This document shows positions 28,274-48,464 of a DNA stretch of 64,000 nucleotides, in pieces (within the stretch, counting starts at the first letter, position 1; each line of letters opens with the position of its first letter). Origin of the DNA: Acidiferrobacterales bacterium (GTDB lineage: Bacteria; Pseudomonadota; Gammaproteobacteria; Arenicellales; Poriferihabitantaceae); the NCBI GenBank assembly GCA_019633985.1, contig JAHQWE010000005.1:56258-120257 (forward strand). Reading direction: 5' to 3'. The translations under genes and the position numbers were made by a program. The notes under the pieces were generated by a model. That model ran no database searches and was not told the DNA's origin. It saw only the letters and a list, made by a program, of their open reading frames with translations.

Positions 28274-29578
28274 ATGGAACCTGACGTACTCATCATAGGT
28301 GGTGGGCCAGCCGGCACTACCGCTGGTGCCCTGCTTGCGCGCAAAGGATATGAGGTAACGCTGCTAGAGAAAACTAAACACCCTCGGTTTCATATCGGCG
28401 AGTCACTGCTTCCCATGAATATGCCGATCCTGGAGTCGCTGGGAGTTTTAGATCAGGTTAAGGAGATTGGTGTCCCGAAAATGGGTGCTGACTTTACTTA
28501 TGGCGCCAAGACACACCAATACCGCACTTACCGGTTTTCGCGTGCGCTGGGTGATACGCCGACAATGGCTTACGAAGTAAAGCGGGAAGAGTTTGATCAT
28601 ATTCTGTTTCGATCCTGCCAGAATGCAGGGGTGACAACCCATGAGCAGACAACCGTTCGCGAGGTACAGTTGACCGAGGGTAAACCCCAAGTTACCAGCG
28701 ACGATGTCGACGGAAACCAAAGAATCTGGATGCCGAAAATAGTCATTGATGCGAGCGGGAGAGATGCATTTATGGCGTCGCAGCAGGGGTGGAAGGAAAA
28801 AAATCCCAAGCATGCAAGCGCAGCAGTGTTCGGTCATTTTAAAGGGGTGAAGCGTCGACCGGGTCAGGATGAGGGCAACATAAGCGTGTACTGGCATGAA
28901 AATGGCTGGATGTGGATGATTCCACTGAAAGACGATGTGATGAGTATTGGCGCTGTGTGTTGGCCCGACTATCTGAAAACCCGCAAGACTGATCTGCAGC
29001 AGTTTCTGATCGATACCATTCACAGCTGCCCCGCGGCAGGGTCTCGTATGTTGAATTCAGAACTGATTTCCAAGGTTGGTGTGGCATCTAACTATTCCTA
29101 TGGTTCTAGACAATGCTGGTCGGATGGTTTTATTTCGATAGGCGACGCCTACACGTTTATTGATCCAGTGTTTTCCAGTGGGGTTTATCTGGCGATGAGC
29201 AGCGCGCAACGCGCAGTGCCTTCCGTAGAGAACTGGCTCGCAGGAGACGTGACTGCCTTTCGAAGAAGTTGTAAGAAATATGTACGTGATACCAATCGCG
29301 GGTTGAAAGGCTTTTCCTGGTTTATCTATCGGTTTACTTCCCCCGCGATGCGGAATCTGTTCAACAATCCTCGCAATTTTTTTCAGGTTGAAGACGCGGT
29401 AATTAGTATGCTGAGCGGAGATGTGTTCGCTAACAAAAGAGTGGATCGCCGTCTGATCGTGTTTAAGCTGATTTACGCAGTTAGCTGGTTACGTTGCCTG
29501 AAAGAGTCAGTTCGTTCCGCACGGCGCCGACATAGTGTAGCTAAGATTCGAGTCTCAGAAAATCTAGAAGCGACCTAA
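28274..29578 (+). CDS. Flavin-dependent halogenase-like FAD oxidoreductase, APE cluster
   Basis: 434 residues. N-terminal FAD-binding IIGGGPAGTTAGALLA, then PRFHIGESLLP, a block typical of flavin-dependent phenol/pyrrole halogenases, GVPKMGADF with a lysine where halogenases keep their catalytic lysine, and WMWMIP (about 212-217), an exact WxWxIP match. In halogenases that motif keeps the enzyme from acting as a monooxygenase. FISIGDAYTFIDPVFSSGVYL is the second FAD contact. It opens the cluster on the plus strand. It could halogenate the aryl ring, as in xanthomonadin synthesis. A non-halogenating geranylgeranyl-reductase-like role remains possible. Fold secure; reaction inferred. Confidence 0.85.
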   Translation: MEPDVLIIGGGPAGTTAGALLARKGYEVTLLEKTKHPRFHIGESLLPMNMPILESLGVLDQVKEIGVPKMGADFTYGAKTHQYRTYRFSRALGDTPTMAYEVKREEFDHILFRSCQNAGVTTHEQTTVREVQLTEGKPQVTSDDVDGNQRIWMPKIVIDASGRDAFMASQQGWKEKNPKHASAAVFGHFKGVKRRPGQDEGNISVYWHENGWMWMIPLKDDVMSIGAVCWPDYLKTRKTDLQQFLIDTIHSCPAAGSRMLNSELISKVGVASNYSYGSRQCWSDGFISIGDAYTFIDPVFSSGVYLAMSSAQRAVPSVENWLAGDVTAFRRSCKKYVRDTNRGLKGFSWFIYRFTSPAMRNLFNNPRNFFQVEDAVISMLSGDVFANKRVDRRLIVFKLIYAVSWLRCLKESVRSARRRHSVAKIRVSENLEAT

Positions 29579-29629
29579 GTGGTTGGTTTCTACCCGCTGG
29601 TTATAACTCTATGCCCAACAAGCATTGAA

Positions 29630-30445
29630 TTAATTTGAATTTGGGCAAAATCGATAGAGATCAAAACCGGGATACTTGTTGGCGATCTGTATGACACCTT
29701 GTTCGCAACGGATCTCAACCAGGTTAAATCGCCTGATTTGTTGTGCTGCTAAAGCAATTTGATAATCATCGTATAGGAAGCACATTGCGTGATAGCAAGA
29801 CGCTGATTCGAGTGTGGCGTTAGCTAGAGTGTTTTTCTGATCCGCCGGTTTGAATTCAATCGTACCTAGCTCCATCGCACCAATTCCAAGACACTTGGAT
29901 TTCAGGTATGCCTCTTTTTGTGTCCATAGTAAATAAAAATGTGCCGATTGCTCGGTGTTCGGGTCGAGCGCTCTTAGCGTATTCAATTCATCCTTACTAC
30001 AAAATTGTTCAGCGGTGTTCAGATATTCTCTGAGTTTCCCCCGATACTCGATGTCCAGTCCCAGAGGCTGAAATTCGCTCACAGCTACGCCAACCAGATC
30101 GGCACTGTGACTGATACTGAAATGTATGCCGGCCGCTTCTGCTTGGGGGCAGTAAGGAGGTAAATTTTCACGATCTTTGATATTGATCGAAGCTTGGTCT
30201 GGTAGCGATAGATACTGATCGAGCACATATCGCAGTAACCATCTCGATAAACGATATTCCTTCGCGCGTTTGGTCGACATCGAAGCAATTCTGTCGATCT
30301 GGTCTCTGTTTAAACAATGAAACTCATCAAGCTGCTGCAAACACTCGAAATATCTATTGTCCACGACAAAAAGTACGGTGTTCTCTTTTTGGTCCAGGGC
30401 TTTCCGGGTAGAATTTGATAGCATAAGAGCGGGGCCGATTTGCAT
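29630..30445 (-). CDS. 4'-phosphopantetheinyl transferase (Sfp-type)
   Basis: 271 residues. Activates carrier proteins by adding phosphopantetheine. Diagnostic motifs: HFSISHSADLVGVAVS, GLDIEY with the Mg-binding D-x-E, and WTQKEAYLKSKCLGIG (WxxKEAxxK). The N-terminal part has KRAKEYRLSRWLLRYVL, common to Sfp-type enzymes. Being inside the cluster, its likely targets are the two ACPs at 41.5 and 42.8 kb. ATG start at 30445 with GGGAG upstream. It is transcribed against its neighbours and is convergent with the halogenase-like gene. Confidence 0.92.
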   Translation of the reverse strand: MQIGPALMLSNSTRKALDQKENTVLFVVDNRYFECLQQLDEFHCLNRDQIDRIASMSTKRAKEYRLSRWLLRYVLDQYLSLPDQASINIKDRENLPPYCPQAEAAGIHFSISHSADLVGVAVSEFQPLGLDIEYRGKLREYLNTAEQFCSKDELNTLRALDPNTEQSAHFYLLWTQKEAYLKSKCLGIGAMELGTIEFKPADQKNTLANATLESASCYHAMCFLYDDYQIALAAQQIRRFNLVEIRCEQGVIQIANKYPGFDLYRFCPNSN

Positions 30446-30554: not shown

Positions 30555-31115
30555 ATGAAAAGCCTCAGTGCAATCTTAGCGGTAATTATCGCTGTGGGCT
30601 ATCCACTGATGGTGTACTTTGGACTACAGCAATATGGATCAAGGGGTCTGGCGATTGTGTTACTGGCTGCTGTCTGTATCCGTTACTATCTGGTTCGCCC
30701 AGCGACCACAATCCAAAGCCTTGGCGTTATTGTGGTGGGGATATTCAGCTTATGTATTATCGCTCTCGACAGTGAGCTCTTGTTACGTTTCTATCCGGTA
30801 GTATTAAGCGTCAGTGTCGCTGCATTCTTTTTTTTCTCGCTATGGAGTGAGAAAACGGCTATCGAAAAGTTTGCAGAAATATCAGGCGAAATCATCACGC
30901 CAACAGCGAGATATTATATGCGTCGCTTAACCATCTGTTGGGTGGCATTGATGCTGTTGAATGCAGCAATCGCTGCCTACACAGCACTGTATATGTCACT
31001 GTCTCACTGGACCTTATACAACGGGGTTTTATCTTATCTGCTCATAGGTCTGTTTATGCTCGGCGAATGGCTGTATCGACAACACTATAAACGAACTCGC
31101 GGAACCGCTGGATGA
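30555..31115 (+). CDS. COG4648-type membrane protein of APE clusters
   Basis: 186 residues with about five TM segments (residues ~3-25, 28-45, 52-72, 78-95, and two in the last 60 residues) and a short Lys/Arg-rich C-terminus. Proteins of this kind (sometimes mislabelled 'DNA gyrase subunit B') recur in aryl-polyene clusters, where their role is undefined. The stop overlaps the next start by 4 nt, so it heads a tightly coupled plus-strand operon of six genes. Confidence 0.75.
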   Translation: MKSLSAILAVIIAVGYPLMVYFGLQQYGSRGLAIVLLAAVCIRYYLVRPATTIQSLGVIVVGIFSLCIIALDSELLLRFYPVVLSVSVAAFFFFSLWSEKTAIEKFAEISGEIITPTARYYMRRLTICWVALMLLNAAIAAYTALYMSLSHWTLYNGVLSYLLIGLFMLGEWLYRQHYKRTRGTAG

Positions 31116-31531
31116 CCCCTCTTAATCTGGATCAGCTGCATGACCTAGATGCCATAGCAGCGTCTCTCAATCAGGAGTTCAACCCAAACCAGTGGCCAAC
31201 AATTTCTGATATACGATTTGACGGTGATACTTTGTCTTTGGCGTTAAACGTCACCTCTGACCTCAAATGGTTTGAGGGCCATTTCCCCGATAATCCAGTG
31301 TTACCTGGCGTAGTGCAAGTACATTGGGCCGTCAGCCTTGCGAAGAAACTGCTGGTCAACAATGCAGATTTCAACCAAGTGGAAAACCTGAAGTTCAAAT
31401 CAGTGGTTCTTCCAGAAACGAACCTGACACTTCACTACACTGGATTACAATCGGGCGAAAAAATTCGATTTTCGTTCAACGCCAGTGAAACTGGCGAAGT
31501 GCATTCGGAAGGACGATTGACGTTTGATTGA
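31112..31531 (+). CDS. ApeI-like hotdog 3-hydroxyacyl-ACP dehydratase
   Basis: 139 residues. The motif WFEGHFPDNPVLPGVVQVHW is the FabZ/ApeI catalytic-histidine segment (GHFPxxPxxPG), followed by a hotdog strand pattern (LKFKSVVLPETNLTLHY). It should remove water from beta-hydroxyacyl-ACP to form each conjugated double bond of the polyene. Overlaps 4 nt with the membrane-protein gene and 8 nt with the glycosyltransferase gene. Confidence 0.87.
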   Translation: MTPLNLDQLHDLDAIAASLNQEFNPNQWPTISDIRFDGDTLSLALNVTSDLKWFEGHFPDNPVLPGVVQVHWAVSLAKKLLVNNADFNQVENLKFKSVVLPETNLTLHYTGLQSGEKIRFSFNASETGEVHSEGRLTFD

Positions 31532-32288
31532 ACCAGGCCATCATCTGGAATCAGATTATCAGTGCTGTTTAATTTTGCCGCACTATAATCATGTGCGAGA
31601 GCTTACTCAGTTTTTACCAAAGCTTCTTTCCCTCGATTTACTTTGCATTATCATTGATGATGGCAGTGACGACGAAGAAAAAAGCCGCCTGATTAGGCTA
31701 CTTGAAGATCATCCGAAGATAGAACTGATTTTTCATCATCACAATCGAGGAAAAGGAGCGGCAGTAATGACCGCTGCTGTACACGCAAGGTCTCGTGGAA
31801 TGACCCACATCTTTCAGGTAGACGCTGATGGTCAGCACAATCTGGAAGACGTCAGCGGTTTTATTGCGGCTAGTAAAGCTGCACCCTTAACCATTGTTTG
31901 CGGGAAGCCTGTTTTTGACGAGACGGCCCCAAAAGCGCGGGTTTATGGCAGAAAAGTCACCGACTTTTGGGTTTCTCTGGAAACACTTTCGTTGAAAATA
32001 AAAGATGGACTATGCGGGTTTCGAATCTATCCTCTGGAGCAGCTGGAACGCTTGATGGACGACTACTATCTTGGCCCAAGAATGGATTTTGATACCGAAG
32101 TACTGGTTAAAGCGGTGTGGCATCAGGTTCCGCTACGATTCCTAGACACCCAGGTACAGTACATTCATGATGGTACTTCGCATTTTCACTATCTTAGAGA
32201 CAACCTGGTGCTGATCCGGCTACATACCAGACTCATGTTTGGCATGGTTCGTAGGCTACCCCGATTGATTCTGAACTTTTTCAACTAA
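31524..32288 (+). CDS. Glycosyltransferase family 2
   Basis: 254 residues with GT-A features: LPHYNHVRELTQFLPKL, IIIDDGSDDEEKSR (donor-binding DDGS), and HIFQVDADGQHNLEDV, the metal-binding DxD region. No ATG exists near the family start, so the TTG at 31524, which overlaps the dehydratase stop, with GGAAGGA upstream, is the best choice. In described APE clusters glycosyltransferase and acyltransferase modules are found fused in one protein (ApeJ); here the next gene supplies the acyltransferase separately. Likely adds a sugar to the polyene lipid anchor, which is inference. Confidence 0.88.
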   Translation: MIEPGHHLESDYQCCLILPHYNHVRELTQFLPKLLSLDLLCIIIDDGSDDEEKSRLIRLLEDHPKIELIFHHHNRGKGAAVMTAAVHARSRGMTHIFQVDADGQHNLEDVSGFIAASKAAPLTIVCGKPVFDETAPKARVYGRKVTDFWVSLETLSLKIKDGLCGFRIYPLEQLERLMDDYYLGPRMDFDTEVLVKAVWHQVPLRFLDTQVQYIHDGTSHFHYLRDNLVLIRLHTRLMFGMVRRLPRLILNFFN

Positions 32289-33313
32289 TGGCTACGCAAT
32301 CCACACAGGGTTCAGACTCCGCGCATTCTGGAAAAACCAAACACTGGTCGGAATTCCAAGAAGCCGGGACCTTGCTAGGCTTTCGTTTTATGCTTGGCGT
32401 TTACAAGGTTTTCGGGAGATGGGTATTCAATTTGATTTTATATCCGGCGATGGCCTATTTCACCGTATTTAGACCGCAGTCTCGGAAGGCTTCGTTAGGG
32501 TTTTTGCAGACTCACTACCGTTTTAACCCAAGCTACTGGAAATCACCTCCGGGATTTCTTGATGTCGTTAAACATTTTATGCAATTTGGCCATAGCGTAT
32601 TGGACAAACTCCTGGCATGGAGTGTGCCCATTGGGAAAGACGCATTCGATGTTCCCGACCAGAAAGCGATTGATACGTTTCATGACGATCCGCGTGGCCA
32701 GTTGATCATCGGCAGTCATTTGGGGAATCTGGAATTTTGTCGGGGATATATGAGCCGATATCATGATCGCACGATCAACATATTGTTACACGATCGGCAT
32801 GCGGCAAACTTCGTAGAAATGATGCGACGAATCAATCCACTCTCCAGGCTTTATATTTATCAGGTCGACAGTCTCGATATCGGGACGATTCTTGAACTGA
32901 AAGCCAAAATTGAAAACGGGGAGTGGTTGTTTATTGCCGGCGATCGGGTTCCCCTAAGTGGTTATTTACGCACGACCAAGGTTTCTTTTCTCGGAAAGCC
33001 TGCCTGGTTGCCGATTGGTCCGTATTTGCTCGCAAAGTCACTGGGTTGTCCGGTGAAAATGATTTTTGCATTTCGGATGGCTGGCAAAATCCGCCTTGAG
33101 ATCGCGTCTCTGGGTGATCGTATTGAACTGGTTCGTGGGGACCGAGAGGGACAAATTAATGCGCTGGCGCAACGATTTGCTACCGAGCTTGAGGATCGTT
33201 GTACCAGAGCGCCCTTTCAGTGGTTTAATTTTTATGATTTTTGGAGTGATGCTCACGCTACTGAAAAAAGTGAGACGGCGGTAAAACCCGTCATTCCGGC
33301 GGTAGATCGTTAA
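32288..33313 (+). CDS. LpxL/HtrB-like acyltransferase
   Basis: 341 residues, membrane-associated acyltransferase of the lipid A lauroyl/myristoyltransferase superfamily. Seen: a hydrophobic N-terminal segment (NLILYPAMAYFTVF), the HxxxxE motif in GSHLGNLEFCRGY, and AGDRVPLSGYLRTTKVSFLGKPAWLPIGPYLLA in pieces. Probably transfers the polyene or a fatty acid from ACP to the glycosylated anchor. One-base overlap (TAATG) with the glycosyltransferase gene makes a coupled pair equivalent to the fused ApeJ form. Confidence 0.88.
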   Translation: MATQSTQGSDSAHSGKTKHWSEFQEAGTLLGFRFMLGVYKVFGRWVFNLILYPAMAYFTVFRPQSRKASLGFLQTHYRFNPSYWKSPPGFLDVVKHFMQFGHSVLDKLLAWSVPIGKDAFDVPDQKAIDTFHDDPRGQLIIGSHLGNLEFCRGYMSRYHDRTINILLHDRHAANFVEMMRRINPLSRLYIYQVDSLDIGTILELKAKIENGEWLFIAGDRVPLSGYLRTTKVSFLGKPAWLPIGPYLLAKSLGCPVKMIFAFRMAGKIRLEIASLGDRIELVRGDREGQINALAQRFATELEDRCTRAPFQWFNFYDFWSDAHATEKSETAVKPVIPAVDR

Positions 33314-33314
33314 C

Positions 33315-33776
33315 ATGTGCCCTCAACCGGATCATCTCTATCGATATCTCCCCCATCGTCCGCCGATGCTGCTGCTGGACCGGTTACTCGACGTTCAGTC
33401 AACGTGTTCAGAAGCAGCGATTCAAATAACGTCAGATTCAACGTTCTATATACCGCACAAAGGCGTACCTGCCTGGATCGGCATAGAATATATGGGGCAG
33501 ACAGCTGCAGCGATTGCCGGCTATCAGTTGGAGGCGGGTACGCTGGCCCCCCACGTTGGTCTTCTTTTAGGCACTCGTAAATATCGCGCTGCGATTGAGT
33601 GGTTTGCGCCAGGCACTGATTTGAGAGTGCGATGCAATGAACGAGGTGTTATGCCAGGCGGCATTGCGACATTTCAGTGTGAAATCGCATTGATCGAAGC
33701 TAGTCAGTCTGAATCGGTGGTGGCGACGGCGAATCTAACAGTCTACCGAACTACTATGAAACCGGAATCTGGATGA
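33315..33776 (+). CDS. ApeP-like 3-hydroxyacyl-ACP dehydratase (copy 1)
   Basis: 153 residues with the ApeP signature YLPHRPPMLLLDRLLDV, then PAWIGIEYMGQTAAAIAGYQ, and LLLGTRKYRAAIEWFAPGTDL. The hotdog fold with LPHxxxMLLxD distinguishes it from the ApeI type. It is coupled to the downstream ketosynthase (4-nt overlap). A second ApeP-like gene lies at 37.5-38.0 kb on the other strand, also next to a ketosynthase, so this pair looks like an inverted duplicate. Confidence 0.87.
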   Translation: MCPQPDHLYRYLPHRPPMLLLDRLLDVQSTCSEAAIQITSDSTFYIPHKGVPAWIGIEYMGQTAAAIAGYQLEAGTLAPHVGLLLGTRKYRAAIEWFAPGTDLRVRCNERGVMPGGIATFQCEIALIEASQSESVVATANLTVYRTTMKPESG

Positions 33777-34999
33777 ACAGGCGAGTAGTGATTACCGGAG
33801 GTGGTACGGTATCTGCGCTTGGCAACAGCTGGGCTACCGTGCGAGACGCCCTGCGTTCCAAAACAAACTCTGTGAGAGTGATGGAAGAGTGGGAACAATA
33901 CCCTGATCTGAAAACGCGATTAGCGGCTCCGGTGCAAAACTTCGAGATGCCTGAACGTTACACGCTAAAGAAAACCCGGAGTATGGGTCGTGTGGCAAAG
34001 CTGGGGATAATCGCCACAGAACAGGCATTAGAGTCTGCGGGATTGCTGAACGACCCGGTTATCAAAAACGGCATGACCGGTGTCAGCTTTGGCTCTGCAA
34101 CCGGTAGCAGCGATGCCGCACTGGAGTTTTTTAATCTCTTGGAGCGTCAATCGATGTCAAAAATCAATGGCACGACGTATTTGCGAATGATGAGCCATAC
34201 CGCTGCGATCAATATCAGTGTTTGCTTTGGAACAACCGGGCGAATGCAAACAACCTCGACAGCCTGTACTGCCGGTAGTCAGGGCATTGGCTTCGCATAT
34301 GAAACAATCAAAAGCGGTCAACAAGATGTGATGATTGCCGGCGGTGCAGAAGAGTTGTGTCCCACTCAAGCCGCGGTGTTCGATACAGTGTACGCAGCAA
34401 GTGTGAGGAACGAGCAACCTGAATCAACCCCAAGACCTTTTGATCAGGCCCGGGATGGGTTGGTGTTGGGGGAGGGGGCGACAACGCTTATTCTAGAATC
34501 CTATGAGCATGCGATGGCGAGAAACGCCACGATACTTGCTGAGGTGGTTGGATTTGCAACCAATACAGATGGCAAGCACATTGTGCGTCCCAATCAGGCA
34601 ATGATGGAGAGCGTGATGGCAATGGCATTGAAAAGCGCGGAGTTAACGGCCACGGAGATTGATTATATTTCTGCCCATGGTACCGGCACAGAACATGGCG
34701 ATATCGCGGAGAGTTGTGCCACAGAACAGGTGATGGGTAATGCAGTTCCGATCAGTTCTCTGAAAAGTTATACCGGTCATACGCTCGGTGCTTGTGGCGC
34801 TTTCGAGGCGTGGGCGGGAATTCATATGATGAACGAAGGGTGGTTTGCGCCCACCTTAAATCTTGTTGATGTCGATCCCCGGTGCGGAAACCTGGATTAC
34901 ATTCGTGAAGAGAATCGGACAATTACGGCGACCCACTTCATGAGTAACAACTTTGCTTTTGGTGGTGTCAATACATCACTCGTTTTTCGGAAAATCTGA
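33773..34999 (+). CDS. beta-ketoacyl-ACP synthase, FabF-like (copy 1)
   Basis: 408 residues with intact Cys-His-His triad: nucleophile in TSTACTAGSQGIGF (about 164), SAHGTGTEHGD and YTGHTLGACGAFEAW. Chain-extension condensing enzyme for polyene assembly. The closest relative in the window is the ketosynthase at 35.5-36.7 kb; they share long stretches such as AGGAEELCP, TPRPFDQ and NNFAFGG. Last gene of the plus-strand operon that begins at 30.5 kb, convergent with the YbjQ-like gene. Confidence 0.93.
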   Translation: MNRRVVITGGGTVSALGNSWATVRDALRSKTNSVRVMEEWEQYPDLKTRLAAPVQNFEMPERYTLKKTRSMGRVAKLGIIATEQALESAGLLNDPVIKNGMTGVSFGSATGSSDAALEFFNLLERQSMSKINGTTYLRMMSHTAAINISVCFGTTGRMQTTSTACTAGSQGIGFAYETIKSGQQDVMIAGGAEELCPTQAAVFDTVYAASVRNEQPESTPRPFDQARDGLVLGEGATTLILESYEHAMARNATILAEVVGFATNTDGKHIVRPNQAMMESVMAMALKSAELTATEIDYISAHGTGTEHGDIAESCATEQVMGNAVPISSLKSYTGHTLGACGAFEAWAGIHMMNEGWFAPTLNLVDVDPRCGNLDYIREENRTITATHFMSNNFAFGGVNTSLVFRKI

Positions 35000-35478: not shown

Positions 35479-36714
35479 TTAGGGGTTCCACTTTTTAAAA
35501 ATGAGAGAAGTGTTGATACCACCGAACGCAAAATTATTGCACATCACATATTCGGCCTCCAGATGTCTACCAGTGCCAACGATATAGCCGAGCTGGGCGC
35601 AGTTCTCCGCGGGTTGGTTGAGGTTAAGCGTGTGGCTAAACCAACTCTGATTCATCATTTCAATGCTCGCCCAGCTTTCAATCGCGCCGCAGGCGCCCAG
35701 GGTATGCCCAATATTGCCCTTGAGAGAACTGAAGGGTATGTCAGGACCAAACAAGTTGGCGGTTGCTTTGGATTCAGCAGCATCTCCGTGCTCGGTTCCG
35801 GTTCCGTGGCCATTCACATACTGGATATCTTCGGCTTGAAGACCGGCATCATCGAGAGACAGCTGCATGACAGAGCCCATGCTGTCACTATTAGGTTGGG
35901 TAATATGATCGCCATCGCAGTTGGTGCCAAACCCAACCAGTTCTGCGTAAATATTTGCCCCTCGTTGTTTGGCGTGCTCCATTTCTTCCAGAATTAGAGT
36001 ACAGGCCCCCTCACCGATGACGAGCCCGTCACGTTGCTGGTCAAATGGCCTGGGTGTGAGATTGGGGGTGTCATTCTTAAGGCTGGTGGCATAAAGAGTG
36101 TCGAAAATAGCCGCTTCTGATGGACACAATTCTTCTGCTCCGCCAGCGACCATCGCTATCTGTTTTCCATATCGAATGGAATCGAACGCGTAACCAATAC
36201 CCTGACTCCCTGACGTACAAGCGGTAGAGGTATTGAATACACGACCTTTTAAGCCAAAAAAAACCGCGATGTTGGCAGCAGTTGTATGACCCATTAGACG
36301 TATATAGGTTGTCGCATTCACCTTGGAACTATCGCCGCCCGAGATCATATCGGTAAGATCTTGTATGGCGTCTGTTGAACCTGTGCACGAGCCGTAAGCA
36401 ACTCCTACCCTGCCGCTAGTGAGAATTTCGCTATCAAGCAAACTGGCATCTATTAACGCCTGCTCTGTGGCGGCCGCCGCCAGTGCAGCGACCCGTCCCA
36501 TAGAGCGCGTTTTTTTTCGCTTCCAATGGATTGGTGTTGAAAAGTCGGTGACTAGCGCTGCGAGTCGGGTAGATAGACCGTCAATGGATTCCCAATCTTC
36601 CATATAGCGCACGGCACTTTTGTTCGACATCAGCGCATCGCGGAACGCTGACCAGCTATGACCGAGTGGCGTGATCGCGTGCATGCCGGTGACTGCTACC
36701 CGGTGCAATGCCAT
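35479..36714 (-). CDS. beta-ketoacyl-ACP synthase, FabF-like (ApeR-like, copy 2)
   Basis: 411 residues from the ATG at 36714, which overlaps the ketoreductase stop (TGATG); the track adds an upstream GTG. Active-site residues are intact: TSTACTSGSQGIGYAF, NGHGTGTEHGD and NIGHTLGACGAIESW. With the dehydratase and ketoreductase upstream it reproduces the order ApeP-ApeQ-ApeR known from the E. coli and Xenorhabdus APE clusters. It is a clear paralogue of the ketosynthase at 33.8-35.0 kb, facing it on the opposite strand. Confidence 0.93.
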   Translation of the reverse strand: MALHRVAVTGMHAITPLGHSWSAFRDALMSNKSAVRYMEDWESIDGLSTRLAALVTDFSTPIHWKRKKTRSMGRVAALAAAATEQALIDASLLDSEILTSGRVGVAYGSCTGSTDAIQDLTDMISGGDSSKVNATTYIRLMGHTTAANIAVFFGLKGRVFNTSTACTSGSQGIGYAFDSIRYGKQIAMVAGGAEELCPSEAAIFDTLYATSLKNDTPNLTPRPFDQQRDGLVIGEGACTLILEEMEHAKQRGANIYAELVGFGTNCDGDHITQPNSDSMGSVMQLSLDDAGLQAEDIQYVNGHGTGTEHGDAAESKATANLFGPDIPFSSLKGNIGHTLGACGAIESWASIEMMNQSWFSHTLNLNQPAENCAQLGYIVGTGRHLEAEYVMCNNFAFGGINTSLIFKKWNP

Positions 36715-37475
36715 CAACACATACCACCGTTGACAGCGATTACCTGCCTGGTGATGTAACCGGCATCATCCGAAAACAAGAATCCGATTGTGGAAGCTAT
36801 GTCCTCAACATTGCCAAACTTTCCCATCGGTATCATCTTTAACGCCTCTTCCTTGTGTATCGATTCCGTCATTTCGGTTTCGATTACACCTGGTGCGACA
36901 CAGTTTACGGTTATCTTGCGTTTAGCTAACTCTATCGCCAGCGCTTTGGTGGCACCAATAATTCCAGATTTCGCGGCGCTATAGTTCACCTGACCTCGAT
37001 TACCAATCAACCCTGATACCGAAGATAAGGTCACGATGCGCCCGCCGGAACGGAGTCGTATCATCGGCATAATAAGCGGATGTAAGACGTTATAAATTGA
37101 ATCCAGATTAGTGTGAATGACGCTGTCCCAGCGTTCCGGTGTCATGGCTGGGAATGCGTCATCTGCCGCGATCCCGGCATTACACACTACGCCATAGTAC
37201 GCACCATGGTTTTCTAGTTGCTGTTCAAGAACGGCTTTTGTGGATTCCCGGTCGCTGACATCAAACTGCAGGATGTCGGCAGTGCCGCCTGATGAGTGTA
37301 TGTCTTCAGCAGTTTGCTCCGCTAGGTCGACCGCACTTTTACAATGAACCGTCACATGAAAACCCTTGTTGCCGAGTGTCAAAGCCGAAGCGCGACCAAT
37401 GCCTCGACTTGCACCGGTTATCAAAACCCTTCTGGGCGGGATGTTGTTATCTGAAGGTGGCTTGGGAGAGTTCAT
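36714..37475 (-). CDS. 3-oxoacyl-ACP reductase, FabG-like (ApeQ-like)
   Basis: 253 residues, short-chain dehydrogenase. NADPH site VLITGASRGIGRAS, CNAGIAADDAF, catalytic Ser and Tyr-x-x-x-Lys in TLSSVSGLIGNRGQVNYSAAKSG, and the closing VIAVNGGMC. It is the only ketoreductase of the cluster and would serve every extension cycle. Its start overlaps the dehydratase stop by 4 nt (ATGA) and its stop overlaps the ketosynthase start, so the three enzymes of the elongation cycle are translationally chained. Confidence 0.94.
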   Translation of the reverse strand: MNSPKPPSDNNIPPRRVLITGASRGIGRASALTLGNKGFHVTVHCKSAVDLAEQTAEDIHSSGGTADILQFDVSDRESTKAVLEQQLENHGAYYGVVCNAGIAADDAFPAMTPERWDSVIHTNLDSIYNVLHPLIMPMIRLRSGGRIVTLSSVSGLIGNRGQVNYSAAKSGIIGATKALAIELAKRKITVNCVAPGVIETEMTESIHKEEALKMIPMGKFGNVEDIASTIGFLFSDDAGYITRQVIAVNGGMC

Positions 37476-37978
37476 AAAATGGTTTGTGAATTGCGTTGCT
37501 GCTCATTTATTTTGGAACGAGCAATCACATCATTCGGATTGTCGGGCATGACAGCCTTGATGACGGCGCTTGCTACTTTTCCATCACCGAATTTGTTCCG
37601 ATTTGCGTGATGTAACGCGCAGTCATAGACACCGATTCCTTCCTCGTCACGAAACGTTTGTTCAATACATGCATGGAAGGTGGTGCCTGCTCGGTACGCT
37701 TTTTCGTCAATTGACATGATTCTGGCGCCAATTATAAATCCAATTGTGACAGGTTTACCTTGTTCTAGTTGCCGAATTCCAGCATGTGCGGCTGCCGATT
37801 GGCAGAGATACTCCATACAGATCAAACTCGATATACTACCGTCCACATTTTCGAAAAGATCACAATTCATCTCACCAGCCGAAGTTTCTATATGATCGTC
37901 ATCCCAGGTCAGGATTTGGTCTATTAGCAACATAGATGAACTATGTGGGAGAACTTGATGCGGATAGTAAGTTTTCAT
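37472..37978 (-). CDS. ApeP-like 3-hydroxyacyl-ACP dehydratase (copy 2)
   Basis: 168 residues: VLPHSSSMLLIDQILTWDDD, ICMEYLCQSAAAHAGIRQLEQG, IGFIIGARIMSIDEKAYRAGTTF in pieces. Same LPHxxxMLLxD and EYxxQ[ST]AAAxAG signature as the gene at 33.3 kb. It carries a C-terminal extension of about 20 polar residues not seen in copy 1. Expected to dehydrate hydroxyacyl intermediates; whether the two copies act on different chain lengths cannot be seen from sequence. Confidence 0.87.
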   Translation of the reverse strand: MKTYYPHQVLPHSSSMLLIDQILTWDDDHIETSAGEMNCDLFENVDGSISSLICMEYLCQSAAAHAGIRQLEQGKPVTIGFIIGARIMSIDEKAYRAGTTFHACIEQTFRDEEGIGVYDCALHHANRNKFGDGKVASAVIKAVMPDNPNDVIARSKINEQQRNSQTIL

Positions 37979-38000
37979 TCTACTTGCTAGCGTTTCATTG

Positions 38001-40283
38001 TCACCGCAAGGAGGGCTGAGGCAATGGCTGCAAATGCGCGTAGATAAAGGTGCCGGCGAGATTCAGGCCATTGCCAATCAAAACAGTGATTCCAAAAGCA
38101 TGCACCACTGGAATGCTGCTTAGGCTCAGTAACCCAAAGGACAGAAGGCTAGTTAGTGCGGAAAGAAATACCGCTTGCAAGGTCATCTGTGATTCATTAT
38201 GTAGTTCAGAAACAAAAATAACGTAGTCCATTCCGAGACCAAGTACAAGGAACAATGCCATTGCATGAAATAACGTAATACCTGGACCAAAAACACTTAG
38301 AAGTAGCAAGGTCGATGTCACCGCGCCAACGGGTACAAGCATCATCGACAATTTTCGCCAGGAACGATATCGAATATAAACTGTAATCGCGACCAGCAAA
38401 AAAGCCAGTGCCAGGAATCTGGCAGAAGCCTCTCGTTGGTTTTTTAGTGCCTGTGAGGACAGCGATGTAATGTCGATAAAATCGACTCCAGGAACGTCCT
38501 GCCATCTCGTAGAATTAGATTTAACTTCTGAAATATCCTTAATCAGTGCGAAAGAATAATACGTGCCGTGATATTCAAGCGCTAGTGGGGGTAGAGAAAG
38601 TGTGGGATCCTGGAATAGCGCCAGGGGCGATAGGATCTTGTCAGCGGCCAGAGCAAACTCTGTTTGTAACGGCTTTGCTTCGATTCCGAGATCGTTTAAA
38701 AAGAGCTCAATGGCCCCGCCGCCGATATATAGTGATTCCTGTGCTCGGATATTAGTGCGTTGCACTGCGGGCGGCAGCAACCAGTTTGAAATGGTAACCA
38801 GAGTATCCGCGGGATATTTTTGTGTGAGTGAATCAACGCGCTCAAACAGCGACTCTTCATCTTTTGCGCGGATAACAAAATACTGACCTGGTTCCAATTT
38901 AGAAGAGTGTTTGGCGACTAGTTTTTCCTCCTCGAGTAATGCAGTAGACGGATTGAAGAATGCACGGGGACTATCATTTCCACGTATCCCATAGAGCGCG
39001 AGTGCCATCAGCGTGCATACCACGGCACCGATCATGATCGGGTGTTTTAAGGCAAGTGGTGCGGTGAAGTTAGTGAGCGCCTTCACTATCGGTGGAAGGA
39101 ATGTCGGGTTAACCGTGACGCTCGACCCCATCAGTTTGTTCGCTAGCGCGAGAACCGTCAACCAGGCAGCCACCAACCCCGAGCAGGAGAATACCGCGAT
39201 TTTTTGCAGAGAAACAAGTTCGGACAACCCTAGTGCGCCGTAGCCAATTAAAGAAGAGACCAGACTAAGCTTCATCGCATTGAGTAATCCTGCATGCGTG
39301 TTCTCAGTAGCCAGATTGGAATGGCAATAGAAGTAATGGAGCGAGTAATCAATGATGATACCGATTAGACTAGCGCCGAAAACGATTGTTAATATATGTA
39401 TCGAACCATAAAGCCAATGGGTGATCACAAAGGCGAAAACAATGCCCATGGCGACCGAGACGAAAGGTAATAGTAGTGGTCTGAGAGAGAAAAAGGTGAG
39501 CAGCAACAGAGTAATAATGGCTAACACCGATACCGCGCTGATCAACTGAATATCGCTCCTTGCCTCTCCAGCCGCTTCGGCGGCGAAGAAAAATACCCCC
39601 GAGCGATAGATATCTATTTCTGTATAGGTTTCATGGACCTGTTGTTCGATTTCAGACAACGCGGATTGCAGTGATTGCTGTACCGCTGTCTCAAGGCTAT
39701 TCAAAGACAATTGAACTCGAACTAGTTCAAAAGGTTGTCGTATATCGCCGCGGGGAGTTGCGTTGAACTGTTGAAACAGATAGTCCGAAAACCATCCAAG
39801 TGGATCCTGATGAATTGGCAGCAGTCTGGCGGTGTCAGCTATTTCGTAGAGCCTCTCATTGGCTCTGTTAACCAACTCTTTCTTGGATAAGTCGGTAATA
39901 AGGTTCTTATGTGATTCAGTAATTAAACCGAAACGATGGGGAGTCAGCGAATCGACAAGCTGAGCGGAAACCCGCGAATTACCAATATCTGCCTGCACAC
40001 CCGGTAGTTTCAAAAGTCTATCGCTCACCATCACCGCGACCTCGGCAACAGTTTGTTCACTTGTTCCAGTGATTAATAGTGTGAATCGGCTTTCGATATC
40101 CTTCGAAAGCTCTGCGACCGCGTGCTGTAAGCCCTGGTCTGAGGTGAGCTGTGGTGAGAGATCTTTCAGATTGGTGTCAATACGCAGAGATTGACCACGA
40201 TGCGCAACAAAAAAAACAATAATTACCAGCCAGAGGAAAACGAAACTGATTTTCGTCGAGTTGTGAATTGGAGCAGACTTCAT
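38001..40283 (-). CDS. MMPL-family RND exporter (ApeM-like)
   Basis: 760 residues from the ATG at 40283; the TTG at 40301 in the track has no better ribosome site. One TM near the N-terminus (FVFLWLVIIVFFVAHRG), a periplasmic loop to about residue 250, a TM cluster (IQLISAVSVLAIITLLLLTFFSLRPLLL onward), a second loop from about 440, then the final TM cluster (YIRYRSWRKL ... GLGMDYVIFVSEL). Each cluster has the GxxxDY proton-path motif (IGIIIDYSLHY, LGLGMDYVIF). Such proteins in APE clusters are thought to move the finished lipid out of the inner membrane, working with the LolA-like carrier encoded 21 nt upstream. Confidence 0.9.
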   Translation of the reverse strand: MKSAPIHNSTKISFVFLWLVIIVFFVAHRGQSLRIDTNLKDLSPQLTSDQGLQHAVAELSKDIESRFTLLITGTSEQTVAEVAVMVSDRLLKLPGVQADIGNSRVSAQLVDSLTPHRFGLITESHKNLITDLSKKELVNRANERLYEIADTARLLPIHQDPLGWFSDYLFQQFNATPRGDIRQPFELVRVQLSLNSLETAVQQSLQSALSEIEQQVHETYTEIDIYRSGVFFFAAEAAGEARSDIQLISAVSVLAIITLLLLTFFSLRPLLLPFVSVAMGIVFAFVITHWLYGSIHILTIVFGASLIGIIIDYSLHYFYCHSNLATENTHAGLLNAMKLSLVSSLIGYGALGLSELVSLQKIAVFSCSGLVAAWLTVLALANKLMGSSVTVNPTFLPPIVKALTNFTAPLALKHPIMIGAVVCTLMALALYGIRGNDSPRAFFNPSTALLEEEKLVAKHSSKLEPGQYFVIRAKDEESLFERVDSLTQKYPADTLVTISNWLLPPAVQRTNIRAQESLYIGGGAIELFLNDLGIEAKPLQTEFALAADKILSPLALFQDPTLSLPPLALEYHGTYYSFALIKDISEVKSNSTRWQDVPGVDFIDITSLSSQALKNQREASARFLALAFLLVAITVYIRYRSWRKLSMMLVPVGAVTSTLLLLSVFGPGITLFHAMALFLVLGLGMDYVIFVSELHNESQMTLQAVFLSALTSLLSFGLLSLSSIPVVHAFGITVLIGNGLNLAGTFIYAHLQPLPQPSLR

Positions 40284-40303
40284 GATGAGCCGATCAAACA
40301 AAT

Positions 40304-40972
40304 CTAATGATCGGTTTGGAGCATGTCCATGACTTTTCTCGGGAAGTAAAGACTTTCGCAGAGGAGCGGACTTTTCTTAAAAATGCTCGCACACTCCTCG
40401 GTCCCCTGAAAACGAAACTCGGAGGTTTCCAATATCGAAATCGCAGTGTTCGATTTTTCATTGCGGACCAATTCAATATCAATGGTATTGTCTGACCGTC
40501 GGAGCAGAATTTTTTGTAAATGTTTCCTCGCAGATATTTGATTGGGGATGAATTCCACTACTGTCTCATCGTCAGGTTCGGGGACGATAGTAAAATTTTG
40601 ATTCAATGAGGAGATGTCACCTCCCATTAATGCTCGTAACGATGTAGACATACCCCGATGGACCAGGCCTTTTAAAGCACTAACCGAGCCCTCTCTGTCA
40701 AAACGGAAGTTCAAGTCCTCGCTGGTATAAATAGTCGTGTTCTTGACGGGAGTTTCTGTGTGCCAGATTACACCGGCGCGGCAGTCGAATAAAAATCGCC
40801 CGGTTGATCGTAATGGTGCTGGGAGCTCTTCGAGGACTCGGTTTTGCTCAAACTCGCCATGGTATTGACACGATTTGGGAAGCCAATCCTGCAGCGATTC
40901 AGCTGCCAGCAGCACGGAGGAGCAGGCAGAAATGGTGAGTAGAAAGAGTAAGAGCTGAGAGAGAGGTTTCAC
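40304..40972 (-). CDS. LolA-like outer-membrane lipoprotein carrier (ApeL-like)
   Basis: 222 residues from a GTG start with an exported N-terminus (LSQLLLFLLTISACSSVLLAAES). The mature body has the half-barrel strand pattern of LolA: YHGEFEQNRVLEELPAPLRSTGRFLFDC, GVIWHTETPV, SLRALMGGDISSLNQNFTIV. Probably shuttles the hydrophobic product across the periplasm. The GTGA overlap with the thioesterase gene couples them. The C-terminus is longer than housekeeping LolA and includes four extra cysteines overall, possibly disulfide bonded. Confidence 0.85.
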   Translation of the reverse strand: MKPLSQLLLFLLTISACSSVLLAAESLQDWLPKSCQYHGEFEQNRVLEELPAPLRSTGRFLFDCRAGVIWHTETPVKNTTIYTSEDLNFRFDREGSVSALKGLVHRGMSTSLRALMGGDISSLNQNFTIVPEPDDETVVEFIPNQISARKHLQKILLRRSDNTIDIELVRNEKSNTAISILETSEFRFQGTEECASIFKKSPLLCESLYFPRKVMDMLQTDH

Positions 40973-41403
40973 CGCATTGCTTCCACCATCTCAATCAATC
41001 GGGAGGGCGATTCGAACTGCATTTGTCGGTTTTTTACATCCACCGCTACCTGAGTGGTATAGCCCTTGGTGATTTTTTCCTTTGATTCCTTGTCAAAGAT
41101 TTCATAGTTGATTTTCAGCCGATTTTGCCATTCGACCAGGGTAGTGCTCACAACAAAAACCTGGGCAAAAACCAGAGGAGCGACAAACTTGATTTTCATA
41201 TCTACTACGGGGAAAAAGTATCCATCTTCTCGCATCACCTGGTAGTTGTACCCCACCTTGTCGAGAAGGTGGCAACGTGCTTCTTCGAAATATTTCACGT
41301 AATGCCCATGCCACACCACGTCGCAGGAGTCGACGTCATAAAACGGTGCTTTAATTTCGATAGCGTCAGTGATCATGGTGGCCGTTGGCTGGGTCGATGT
41401 CAT
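40969..41403 (-). CDS. 4HBT-type acyl thioesterase (ApeK-like)
   Basis: 144 residues, hotdog thioesterase of the YbgC/4-hydroxybenzoyl-CoA type: FYDVDSCDVVWHGHYVKYFEEARCHLL holds the catalytic Asp region, followed by VVDMKIKFVAPLVF. In APE clusters this enzyme is thought to release or proof-read ACP-bound intermediates. It lies between the ACP gene (62 nt upstream) and the LolA-like gene (overlapping). ATG start at 41403. Confidence 0.88.
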   Translation of the reverse strand: MTSTQPTATMITDAIEIKAPFYDVDSCDVVWHGHYVKYFEEARCHLLDKVGYNYQVMREDGYFFPVVDMKIKFVAPLVFAQVFVVSTTLVEWQNRLKINYEIFDKESKEKITKGYTTQVAVDVKNRQMQFESPSRLIEMVEAMR

Positions 41404-41464: not shown

Positions 41465-41734
41465 CTAAGCGGTCGCTACGACAGGTGTGTTCATAATTCC
41501 ATGGACTGTTCGTACTACGTCTTCCATGGTTTTCACCTCACGAAACGCTTCCTGCTCGATTTTGACGCCAGTCAGGTTTTTTAGCTCAACCATTAAATCC
41601 ACAGCATCAATACTATCGATATCCAAATCTTCATAGAGGTTGGATTGCATGCTGATTTTGTCCTCTTCGATTTCAAAGAGCTCTACCATGAGCGTTTTGG
41701 TATGACGGTAGATCTCTTCCTCAGAATGACTCAT
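41465..41734 (-). CDS. Acyl carrier protein (ApeF-like)
   Basis: 89 residues with the phosphopantetheine-attachment serine in DLDIDSIDAVDLMVEL. Acidic, four-helix ACP size. The C-terminus extends with a short hydrophobic/polar tail (HGIMNTPVVATA). It carries the growing polyene for the minus-strand enzymes downstream. A second ACP with a slightly different site (DGLGLDSIDALEIA) lies at 42.8 kb, matching the two-ACP arrangement of characterised APE systems. Confidence 0.93.
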   Translation of the reverse strand: MSHSEEEIYRHTKTLMVELFEIEEDKISMQSNLYEDLDIDSIDAVDLMVELKNLTGVKIEQEAFREVKTMEDVVRTVHGIMNTPVVATA

Positions 41735-41820: not shown

Positions 41821-42612
41821 TTAGTGCTTATTCACCAAATTTTGAAAATAGGATTGTAAAAAACGCGTGAGATGACGAACCTGAATTGGCTTTGGCCTCG
41901 AGGTGTCAATACATTCCTCTATTACGATCTCAGGCAGTCCACGTAGCGTAAACAGCGGTGGTTGACTCGGTACTTGAAACCACTTTTCGTGTTTTCGCAA
42001 CGTGATCGGATCGCAGTCAATGAGAATAGGTTGAATAGGAGCGCCTGCTGCGACCGCGATATGCGCGCCACCGCGCTTGAAGTCGAGGTTTTTCAGGTCG
42101 ACGGTACGCGTTCCCTCTGGGAAAATAATCAAGTTTTGTCCGCCCTTCAGGTTATCCGCAGCGACTGCAATCAGATCGTCAGTGTCATTACGGATAAACC
42201 CCGCCATCGTTACGACTGCAAATGTGAAGGGGTTTTTCCACAATGCCGCTTTGACTATGCAATTTACATCAGGCACTGCGGACAGAATGAATACCACATC
42301 AAGTAAGGTTGGGTGGTTAGCAATAAACAGCTTCCCAGTTGTTTTTCGTTTGAGAGAAGCGTCGATATCGAAACGCAGCAGACCCAGACTACGCATGATC
42401 CTCACGTATAACCACAGGAGCCAGCGCATGCTGTTGCGAGTCCAGCATTGTTTGGTCGAAGCACTGATGGGTAGCGGGTAAAGCAACAAGGCAAATAGTA
42501 GCCCAAGAACCAGTGCCCCCAATCCAAATAGCATGAAGCTGAACCCGGTGGCCACAATCCGCCAGATTCGAAAGACTGCACTGGATTTGATGGATGCGGT
42601 TAGGCTGGTCAC
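41821..42612 (-). CDS. PlsC-like 1-acylglycerol-phosphate acyltransferase family protein
   Basis: 263 residues from a GTG start. Hydrophobic N-terminus (FMLFGLGALVLGLLFALLLYPLPI) anchors it to the membrane. Acyltransferase motifs NHPTLLDVVF (HxxxxD variant NHPTLLD), GFIRNDTDDL and FPEGTRTVDL are present. Within APE clusters a PlsC-type enzyme may attach the polyene to a glycerol or sugar backbone. First gene of the minus-strand operon that runs down to the YbjQ-like gene; divergent from the ACP/ligase pair across a 173-nt promoter region. Confidence 0.9.
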   Translation of the reverse strand: MTSLTASIKSSAVFRIWRIVATGFSFMLFGLGALVLGLLFALLLYPLPISASTKQCWTRNSMRWLLWLYVRIMRSLGLLRFDIDASLKRKTTGKLFIANHPTLLDVVFILSAVPDVNCIVKAALWKNPFTFAVVTMAGFIRNDTDDLIAVAADNLKGGQNLIIFPEGTRTVDLKNLDFKRGGAHIAVAAGAPIQPILIDCDPITLRKHEKWFQVPSQPPLFTLRGLPEIVIEECIDTSRPKPIQVRHLTRFLQSYFQNLVNKH

Positions 42613-42785: not shown

Positions 42786-43055
42786 ATGGCCGATCAATCA
42801 CCCGCCGAAGCAAAAATGGCTGAGCTAATCGTAGAAGCGCTCAACCTGGAGGATGTTGCCGCCGCAGAAATTGATCCGGAAGCGCCATTGTTTGGCGATG
42901 GCCTCGGGCTGGATTCCATTGATGCACTGGAGATTGCGCTCGCAATTTCTCAGGAATATGACGTTCAAATGCAGGCAGAGGAAGAGCACACTCGGGAGGC
43001 GTTTGCGACGCTTCGTAGTTTGAATCAGTTCGTTGAATCCAATCAAAAAGCCTGA
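42786..43055 (+). CDS. Acyl carrier protein (ApeE-like)
   Basis: 89 residues, acidic, with the modification serine in FGDGLGLDSIDALEIALAI. The GLDSIDALE form is typical of the ACP that receives the activated aryl starter in APE-like systems. It is followed 55 nt later by the acyl-activating ligase, its probable loading enzyme. First gene rightward of the divergent promoter at 42.61-42.79 kb. Confidence 0.93.
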   Translation: MADQSPAEAKMAELIVEALNLEDVAAAEIDPEAPLFGDGLGLDSIDALEIALAISQEYDVQMQAEEEHTREAFATLRSLNQFVESNQKA

Positions 43056-46173: not shown

Positions 46174-46996
46174 GTTCCAGTTCCAACAACAACGAAGTCT
46201 CAGTGCTTAGCGGCATCAAAATGGAAGACGATCCGTCCCGCAAATTTGCCAGCTTTTCAAACAAACACAATATACGTGCCGAAGGGTTGTTTGTGTAAAG
46301 TGATTGCAAGGCACTCGTCTTGAGAGCAGGCCATTCCACTACATTTTGCTGGACGGATACTTTGAGCAGGGTATCTCCTTTTTTTGCTTCGTCATCGGAA
46401 TTAAAGGGCGATAGCACGAGGGAGGCTGCAAACGGTTGGTCATTGATAAGCACGGGTATCAATTGACCTTTTGCGGGCCCGTCACAAAAGGTGAGTAGAC
46501 TCGGCTTTTGCTCGGTTACCAGCTGAGCCATCGCTTCCAATAAGGTGACGGGGGTCGATTCCTTAAAACCCGCTACTGAACTCGCTGGTTGCATACAGCC
46601 GGTGCTGATAGTCCAGTAGCCTGCAGGGGCATTGTGCACAGAATTATGAAATTTGGTTGGAGACAGTTGCTTGGCTTCTGTATTCAAGGTGGTGCACATG
46701 TAGTGTGTAATATCGATGTCACCAAAACCTGAGCTAAACACGCAACTCAACGCAGAGGGTGCGATGCCCGCTTGTTGGCTTGCTTGCCAGGAGGTTTCCA
46801 CCGCAAGTCTGACAGGCAATGGTGCGCGTCTGCGTTCATTCGAAGGAATAATTTCCGGCTTTGGGCCGGGGGCTTGATCATCTTCATACTGACCAGAGCC
46901 GGCGATATAGGCTTCAAGTATTGGCCAATTAGAGAAACCAGGTCCCCAGACACCGATACCATCGATTCGGCAAGACATAGAAGCACATGCGGTCAA
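46166..46996 (-). CDS. Chain-length factor, ketosynthase-like (ApeC-like)
   Basis: 276 residues, a shortened ketosynthase-fold protein: IDGIGVWGPGFSNWPILEAY at the start, VFSSGFGDIDITHYMCTTL, SPTKFHNSVHNAPAGYWTISTGC, but no intact Cys-His-His triad. This is the shape of APE chain-length factors, which pair with the catalytic KS (ApeO) and set polyene length. The TTG at 46996 is preceded by AGGAG at 7-nt spacing, while the in-frame ATG at 46978 has no ribosome site, so I keep TTG. The partner KS is encoded 168 nt upstream. Confidence 0.88.
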   Translation of the reverse strand: MTACASMSCRIDGIGVWGPGFSNWPILEAYIAGSGQYEDDQAPGPKPEIIPSNERRRAPLPVRLAVETSWQASQQAGIAPSALSCVFSSGFGDIDITHYMCTTLNTEAKQLSPTKFHNSVHNAPAGYWTISTGCMQPASSVAGFKESTPVTLLEAMAQLVTEQKPSLLTFCDGPAKGQLIPVLINDQPFAASLVLSPFNSDDEAKKGDTLLKVSVQQNVVEWPALKTSALQSLYTNNPSARILCLFEKLANLRDGSSSILMPLSTETSLLLELERG

Positions 46997-48337: not shown

Positions 48338-48464
48338 TAATAAATACTGGCGGGAACAAAAGACTTTATGGCTACAGAAAAAACCCACATAGACTGCAAC
48401 GGAAAAGAGTTTAACAGCTGCAAATTAGCTTATCTATCCAGAGAACCGACATTATGATTAAGCG

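What the first reader, a model, noticed from the sequence alone, without database searches (positions are those of the whole stretch)
28274..29578. Halogenase signature in the first flavoprotein of the polyene cluster
It has GGGPAG, PRFHIGESLLP, a lysine in GVPKMGADF and an exact WxWxIP (WMWMIP). These are the marks of flavin-dependent halogenases acting on phenols or pyrroles on carrier proteins. A hydroxybenzoyl-ACP made by the adjacent cluster is a plausible substrate, parallel to bromination of xanthomonadin.
Basis: partly seen in the sequence, partly recalled or inferred. Interest (0 to 1): 0.7.

Follow-up and report, generated by a model that had tools for sequence, protein, structure and literature searches.

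The report
Probable halogenase of a pigment cluster
This gene most likely encodes a flavin enzyme that puts a halogen (probably bromine) on the aromatic end of a yellow light-protecting pigment; it is a distant relative of XanB1 from the Xanthomonas pigment cluster, whose chemical job has not, as far as I could find, been shown directly.

Summary
The intact 434-aa ORF at 28274-29578(+) carries every quoted motif. The lysine (K69) aligns with the lysine at the K-x-G position in PltA, CmlS, CndH and FasV, is invariant in 36/36 orthologs, and is absent from this genome's hydroxylases. Sequence and Foldseek searches put known flavin-dependent halogenases (FDHs) ahead of every hydroxylase and geranylgeranyl reductase.

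New identification: it is the ortholog (44-53% identity) of XanB1, annotated 'putative reductase/halogenase', in the Xanthomonas pig cluster, where it lies exactly between the ACP gene and XanB2 (3-hydroxybenzoate synthase). Orthologs sit in aryl-polyene neighbourhoods across the class and beside XanB2 in 44 of 54 relatives examined, which points to the aryl starter as substrate.

A second FDH-like protein (44590-46173,-) is the ortholog of the Xanthomonas gene labelled 'halogenase' beside the KS/CLF pair. A congener has the same cluster and that second protein but lacks this gene at the matching site. Two FDHs fit the two bromines of xanthomonadin I (inference).

Main caution: Azoarcus has an apparent XanB1-position gene (arcA) yet makes a non-halogenated pigment. 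No activity is shown here. Ordinary in kind, moderately interesting.

The parts
28274..29578 (+). XanB1-type flavin-dependent halogenase-like protein ('FDH1'), 434 aa
   Evidence: XanB1 by synteny and PMC3838355
28298..28315 (+). GGGPAG, FAD-binding Rossmann motif (residues 9-14)
28382..28414 (+). PRFHIGESLLP (residues 37-47)
   Evidence: invariant in A1
28469..28495 (+). GVPKMGADF; K69 at the K-x-G catalytic-lysine position
28907..28924 (+). WMWMIP (W.W.IP motif, residues 212-217)
29630..30445 (-). 4'-phosphopantetheinyl transferase, convergent with FDH1; in the block absent from the congener
30555..31115 (+). IspA-like membrane protein (xanthomonadin 'membrane protein' position)
31112..34999 (+). 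ApeI-like dehydratase, GT2, LpxL-type acyltransferase, ApeP-like dehydratase, ketosynthase
35479..41403 (-). ketosynthase, FabG, dehydratase, MMPL exporter, LolA-like, YbgC-type thioesterase
41465..41734 (-). acyl carrier protein 1 (PF00550)
41821..42612 (-). AGPAT-type acyltransferase
42786..43055 (+). acyl carrier protein 2 (PF00550), upstream of the AMP-ligase
43111..44490 (+). AMP-ligase (aryl-ACP loading candidate)
44590..46173 (-). second FDH-like flavoprotein ('FDH2', ortholog of the Xanthomonas 'halogenase' H), WVWIIP, K in LKKFG
46166..48388 (-). CLF-like half ketosynthase (PF13723) and ketosynthase; CLF overlaps FDH2 by 8 nt

Best explanation
The gene encodes a flavin-dependent halogenase, orthologous to XanB1 of the Xanthomonas xanthomonadin cluster. 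Reduced FAD (from a separate flavin reductase) reacts with O2 and halide to give hypohalous acid, which reaches the substrate through a tunnel bearing K69. The most likely substrate is the electron-rich ring of a hydroxybenzoyl or young aryl-polyenyl chain held on the cluster's ACP, and bromide is the most likely halide, giving a halogenated aryl-polyene pigment. Shown here: sequence family, predicted fold, conserved catalytic-position lysine and W.W.IP, orthology to XanB1, and genomic linkage to XanB2, ACP and aryl-polyene genes in relatives. Inferred: activity, aryl ring as the site, ACP-bound timing, bromide; the chemistry is that of characterised FDHs. The flavin reductase partner is unassigned, but two candidates exist in the genome.
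For: Profile search of PDB: FDHs at E 1e-79 to 1e-23 (Mpy16, ChlB4, FasV, CndH, CmlS, PltA, RadH, Bmp2, CtcP, PltM), plus the uncharacterised 3nix flavoprotein; first geranylgeranyl-reductase-type chain only at 1e-14. AlphaFold2 model pLDDT 86.6; Foldseek ranks 1-40 are FDHs or 3nix, first hydroxylase-type at rank 41. K69 invariant in 36/36 orthologs and aligned with PltA, CmlS, CndH and FasV lysines; this genome's FAD_binding_3 hydroxylases lack it. Orthologs in Xanthomonas loci, including X. arboricola pv. juglandis (L013); xanthomonadin I was described from X. juglandis (PMC3949708). Gene order IspA-like membrane protein-ACP-FDH1-XanB2-AMP-ligase-dipeptidyl peptidase in L013 matches the published BMP-ACP-XanB1-XanB2-AMP-l-DP. 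All 21 sampled neighbourhoods outside the named xanthomonads hold aryl-polyene-type genes; XanB2 adjacent in 33/33 named xanthomonad and 11/21 other loci; ACP within 1.5 kb in 41/56. Lysobacter enzymogenes OH11, reported to lack a cluster halogenase gene, makes non-brominated pigment (PMC3691225). Two flavin reductases in the genome.
Against: Azoarcus BH72 arcA, annotated 'halogenase' and next to XanB2/arcB as FDH1 orthologs are, coexists with non-halogenated arcuflavin C41H52O4 (PMC3949708); that arcA is an FDH1 ortholog was inferred from gene order only. PMC3838355 lists XanB1 among genes required for xanthomonadin synthesis, which a mere tailoring enzyme need not be. No halogenase equivalog cut-off is met: CmlS profile 187 bits against 900. 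The window lacks XanB2, and neither XanB2 nor UbiC was found in the 88%-complete genome (the XanB2 family search had no positive control), so the starter's source is unknown. In the window FDH1 is about 12 kb from the ACP, not adjacent.
Confidence: 0.6

Rival explanations
1. FDH2 is the only halogenase of the cluster, and FDH1/XanB1 is an FDH-fold enzyme that does another oxidation or reduction on the aryl starter or chain (hydroxylation, dehydrogenation).
For: Azoarcus arcA (XanB1 position) with a non-halogenated pigment and no second halogenase in its gene list; XanB1 reported as needed for pigment and named 'reductase/halogenase'; FDH2 is the gene labelled plainly 'halogenase' in Xanthomonas.
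Against: Catalytic-position lysine and W.W.IP invariant in FDH1 orthologs; nearest structures are proven halogenases; FDH2 is itself the more remote of the two from known FDHs (best E 2e-27 for FDH2 against 1e-79 for FDH1); L. enzymogenes makes polyene with no cluster halogenase gene, so such an enzyme is not needed for the polyene there (PMC3691225).
Confidence: 0.22
2. A halogenase lineage that is silent or starved of halide here, so that the pigment made is normally non-halogenated.
For: Azoarcus case; PMC3691225 reports xanthomonadins with 0-2 Br.
Against: Catalytic residues are kept in every ortholog aligned.
Confidence: 0.11
3. Geranylgeranyl reductase or aromatic hydroxylase of the general UbiH/PHBH type, with chance FDH-like motifs.
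For: TIGR02032 (geranylgeranyl reductase family) matches at 119 bits.
Against: Below that family's cut-off of 158.8; PDB geranylgeranyl-reductase-type chain at 1e-14 against 1e-79 for halogenases; hydroxylases of this genome lack the lysine and sit on very long separate branches.
Confidence: 0.04
4. A maturase-like peptide-modifying hydroxylase (QhpG, LodB, GoxB type) of FDH fold.
For: QhpG profile 152 bits and LodB 108 bits, second and fourth best NCBIfam matches.
Against: Both under their cut-offs (240, 400); PDB QhpG 1e-12 against 1e-79 for halogenases; the neighbours are aryl-polyene genes.
Confidence: 0.03

Closest known systems
XanB1 of the Xanthomonas pig (xanthomonadin) cluster
   Same: Orthologous by sequence (48-50% identity over nearly the whole protein) to the gene at the exact XanB1 position between ACP and XanB2; same lysine and W.W.IP; same aryl-polyene pathway context.
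   Different: In the window it lies at the cluster edge beside a PPTase and a glyoxalase, about 12 kb from the ACP and without XanB2. The chemistry of XanB1 itself is not, to my knowledge, established.
Mpy16, PltA and ChlB4 (carrier-protein-dependent FDHs)
   Same: Fold (TM 0.81-0.82), 26-29% identity, lysine, W.W.IP.
   Different: FDH1 is one residue shorter before the lysine and lacks their insert before W.W.IP; they form a separate branch in the tree; different pathways.
CndH and CmlS
   Same: First and third best single-sequence PDB matches; lysine at K76 and K71 equivalents; GW.W.IP motif almost identical.
   Different: No long C-terminal domain like that of CmlS; different pathways.
3nix, Cytophaga hutchinsonii flavoprotein
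   Same: Close fold match (TM 0.85-0.86), FDH-like lysine and W.W.IP.
   Different: Function unknown; groups with another subfamily present in the window's family (L006, L007).
FDH2 of the same cluster (44590-46173)
   Same: FDH-like motifs, same cluster, ortholog also in xanthomonads.
   Different: 527 aa, distinct clade (100/100), GEST instead of GESL, linked to KS/CLF rather than to XanB2/ACP.

Membership tests
Flavin-dependent halogenase | GG(G)PAG FAD-binding motif and FDH-type fold | tested here: met
Flavin-dependent halogenase | Conserved active-site lysine | tested here: met
   K69 aligns with PltA, CmlS, CndH and FasV lysines; 36/36 orthologs
Flavin-dependent halogenase | W.W.IP motif | tested here: met
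   WMWMIP; W212, W214, I216, P217 invariant
Flavin-dependent halogenase | Lysine about 10 A from FAD in a tunnel | not testable with these tools
   Model coordinates and FAD docking not available; only fold match and alignment
Flavin-dependent halogenase | Two-component, needs a flavin reductase | tested here: inconclusive
   Two PF01613 proteins in the genome, neither in the cluster
Flavin-dependent halogenase | Halogenates a substrate | not testable with these tools
   Needs enzyme assay or pigment mass spectrum
XanB1 orthologs (xanthomonadin cluster) | Discrete ortholog group by sequence | tested here: met
   Class survey: 35 genomes above 480 bits, next below 260 bits; the tree did not resolve the group as one rooted clade
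XanB1 orthologs (xanthomonadin cluster) | Sits in an aryl-polyene cluster | tested here: met
XanB1 orthologs (xanthomonadin cluster) | Adjacent to XanB2 chorismatase (a neighbourhood trait, not defining for the protein) | tested here: not met
   True of 44/54 relatives, but no XanB2 in the window and none found in the genome
CmlS equivalog NF033113 | Score above curated cut-off 900 | tested here: not met
   187.5 bits; not a CmlS
Geranylgeranyl reductase TIGR02032 | Score above cut-off 158.8 | tested here: not met
   119.2 bits
QhpG NF049967 | Score above cut-off 240 | tested here: not met
   152.6 bits

The most novel reading that the evidence does not exclude
Aryl-polyene pathways use two separate flavin halogenases with divided labour: FDH1/XanB1, tied to the starter genes (XanB2, ACP, AMP-ligase), halogenates the aryl ring, and FDH2, coupled to the KS/CLF pair, halogenates the polyene end. 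That would explain the two bromines of xanthomonadin I. FDH1 would be an optional plug-in that separates singly from doubly halogenated pigments among congeners.
Probability: 0.35. Interest if true: 0.6.

Novelty: new member of a known kind. Interest (0 to 1): 0.4.

Why it matters
Brominated xanthomonadins have been known since the 1970s, yet I found no biochemical assignment of the brominating enzyme in the papers held here. This protein family, defined by orthology and found in about 9% of the class genomes sampled, gives a concrete candidate. Its link to XanB2 and ACP predicts the aryl starter as substrate, and the congener that has the same cluster and FDH2 but lacks FDH1 offers a natural comparison.

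Tried and rejected
Geranylgeranyl reductase and QhpG/LodB readings: rejected on profile cut-offs and PDB ranking. A QhpG search across 143 genomes for tree outgroups found nothing and had no positive control. XanB2 and UbiC in the own genome: none found, in an 88% complete genome. Flanking repeats that would mark a mobile insertion of the FDH1 block: only weak chance-like repeats; GC and GC3 of FDH1 do not stand out. Promoter scan: nothing above shuffles. Viral contigs with FDH2: none. HMMER's alignment put K69 on the first of two lysines in Mpy16 and PltA; MAFFT and the single-lysine homologs CndH and FasV show that it is the second. Review and original papers on xanthomonadin genes (MPMI 2020; J Bacteriol 2002) were not held.

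Full report
WHAT IS THERE. The ORF at 28274-29578(+) is real and intact: 434 aa from an ATG. All four motifs are exact: GGGPAG (9), PRFHIGESLLP (37), GVPKMGADF (66) and WMWMIP (212). It is the outermost gene of an aryl-polyene cluster running to about 48.4 kb: PPTase, IspA-like membrane protein, ApeI- and ApeP-like dehydratases, GT2, LpxL-type acyltransferase, three ketosynthases, FabG, MMPL exporter, LolA-like protein, thioesterase, AGPAT, two ACPs, AMP-ligase and a CLF-like half ketosynthase. A second Trp_halogenase-family flavoprotein, FDH2, lies at 44590-46173(-) and overlaps the CLF-like gene by 8 nt. These two are the only PF04820 proteins found in the genome.

FAMILY. With one sequence, the best PDB matches are CndH 8e-52, Mpy16 1e-49, CmlS, FasV and ChlB4 (molecule names taken from the Foldseek list, where 5buk is Mpy16, 5bva is Bmp2 and 8zop is FasV). 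With a profile of 28 orthologs the FDHs run from 1e-79 to 1e-23, the uncharacterised 3nix flavoprotein among them, and the first geranylgeranyl-reductase-type chain is at 1e-14. NCBIfam: CmlS 187 bits, QhpG 153, geranylgeranyl reductase 119, LodB 108, all below their cut-offs, so no named equivalog applies. The AlphaFold2 model has pLDDT 86.6; Foldseek ranks 1-40 are FDHs or 3nix, and the first hydroxylase-type hit is at rank 41. The tree separates FDH1 and the reference FDHs from this genome's hydroxylases, but those have very long branches, the deep order of FDH1 against the references is not resolved, and FDH1 did not come out as one rooted clade; I therefore rest the family call on scores, residues and fold, not on the tree.

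THE LYSINE. Characterised FDHs of this group read ...K-x-G. CndH and FasV have a single lysine there (chain positions 76 and 78); in CmlS and PltA it is the second of two (chain positions 91 and 76, which fit the published K71 and K73 after subtracting construct residues; that numbering is from memory). FDH1 reads P-K-M-G; MAFFT places K69 in that column. It is invariant in 36/36 orthologs, as are the W, W, I, P of the W.W.IP motif wherever that stretch is covered. FAD_binding_3 hydroxylases of the same genome lack it. Distance to FAD could not be measured.

IDENTITY: XanB1. A scan of named genomes returned 35 relatives, nearly all xanthomonads: Xanthomonas, Lysobacter, Luteimonas, Pseudoxanthomonas, at 48-53% identity, plus one Methylococcaceae MAG at 45%. 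They sit with orthologs of the window's cluster genes. In X. arboricola pv. juglandis (L013) the order is IspA-like, ACP, FDH1, XanB2 chorismatase, AMP-ligase, dipeptidyl peptidase. The published order in X. axonopodis pv. manihotis is membrane protein, ACP, XanB1 (putative reductase/halogenase), XanB2, AMP-ligase, dipeptidyl peptidase, with a separate 'halogenase' H at the other end (PMC3838355). FDH1 is therefore XanB1 by sequence and position, and FDH2 corresponds to H, since L013 carries it at 98-1720 beyond FabG. Xanthomonadin I, described from X. juglandis, is dibrominated (PMC3949708); that one bromine is on the ring and one on the chain is from memory.

DISTRIBUTION. In 369 genomes of the window's class (Gammaproteobacteria by inference: L066 groups with Luteimonas at 100/97), 35 have an FDH1 ortholog above 480 bits, with the next group at 260 bits or less. 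FDH2 is in 8 of 369; only the window's genome and G410 have both in that sample, whereas 19 of 20 genomes of FDH1-bearing relatives, all 19 xanthomonads, have both. Of 21 sampled FDH1 neighbourhoods outside the named xanthomonads, all hold aryl-polyene-type genes, though one has only a single such match. XanB2 (PF21168) is adjacent to FDH1 in 33/33 named xanthomonad loci and 11/21 others. An ACP lies within 1.5 kb in 41/56, divergent in 39. FDH2-only loci show no XanB2, and FDH2 lies beside the CLF/KS pair in all that are long enough. This is why I favour the aryl starter as FDH1's substrate; it is inference from linkage.

A PLUG-IN. Congener G020 has the same cluster (60-88% aa identity), including FDH2 (76%), but MOSC is followed directly by the IspA-like gene: the small ORF, glyoxalase, FDH1 and PPTase (about 3.1 kb) are missing at that site. 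No FDH1 ortholog was found elsewhere in that 86% complete genome. Gain in the window's lineage or loss in G020 cannot be told apart; no clear repeats or base-composition shift mark the block.

PRODUCT EVIDENCE FROM THE LITERATURE. Lysobacter enzymogenes OH11 is reported to lack a halogenase gene in its cluster and makes a pigment without bromine isotope pattern (PMC3691225). Steroidobacter cummioxidans 35Y, with a full xanthomonadin cluster, makes a dibrominated pigment (PMC5979037). Against: in Azoarcus BH72, arcA ('halogenase') lies next to arcB (XanB2) and arcC (outer-membrane protein), the same order as OmpV-XanB2-FDH1 in L119 and L121, yet arcuflavin is C41H52O4 with no halogen. Either halide was lacking, or ArcA does not halogenate; its sequence could not be tested here. 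PMC3838355 also cites XanB1 as required for pigment, which would suggest more than tailoring.

CONCLUSION. Most likely (0.6) an FDH of the XanB1 type acting on an ACP-bound aryl substrate. The chief rival (0.22) is a non-halogenating FDH-fold enzyme with FDH2 as the true halogenase. The kind of enzyme and pathway are known; what is useful is the orthology, the two-halogenase pairing, the linkage-based substrate prediction and the natural FDH1-minus congener.

Noticed in passing
window 44590-46173 (-): Second FDH-like flavoprotein (WVWIIP, LKKFG, GEST), ortholog of the Xanthomonas 'halogenase' H beside the KS/CLF pair; its start overlaps the CLF-like gene by 8 nt.
   Followed up: yes
window 27387-30554; L147 13380-13526: About 3.1 kb (small ORF, glyoxalase, FDH1, PPTase) present in the window is absent at the same site in congener G020.
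   Followed up: yes
L061/L062 (G026, Xanthomonas phaseoli ATCC 49119): The FDH2 ortholog is split over two reading frames, which suggests a frameshift; its pigment would bear on FDH2's role.
   Followed up: no
L090 (G222:C286:4487-5749): FDH1 ortholog with an in-frame TAG early in the gene; pseudogene or sequencing error.
   Followed up: no
L006 (G021), L007 (G019): Relatives in the window's own family carry a different FDH subfamily that groups with the uncharacterised 3nix flavoprotein (100/100).
   Followed up: partly
whole genome G000: Neither XanB2-type nor UbiC-type chorismate enzyme was found, so the source of the hydroxybenzoate starter (and ubiquinone ring) is unexplained; the genome is 88% complete.
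   Followed up: partly
window 33773-34999 (+) and 35479-36720 (-): Two closely related PRK09116-type ketosynthases lie end to end, convergent, an apparent duplication shared with congener G020.
   Followed up: no
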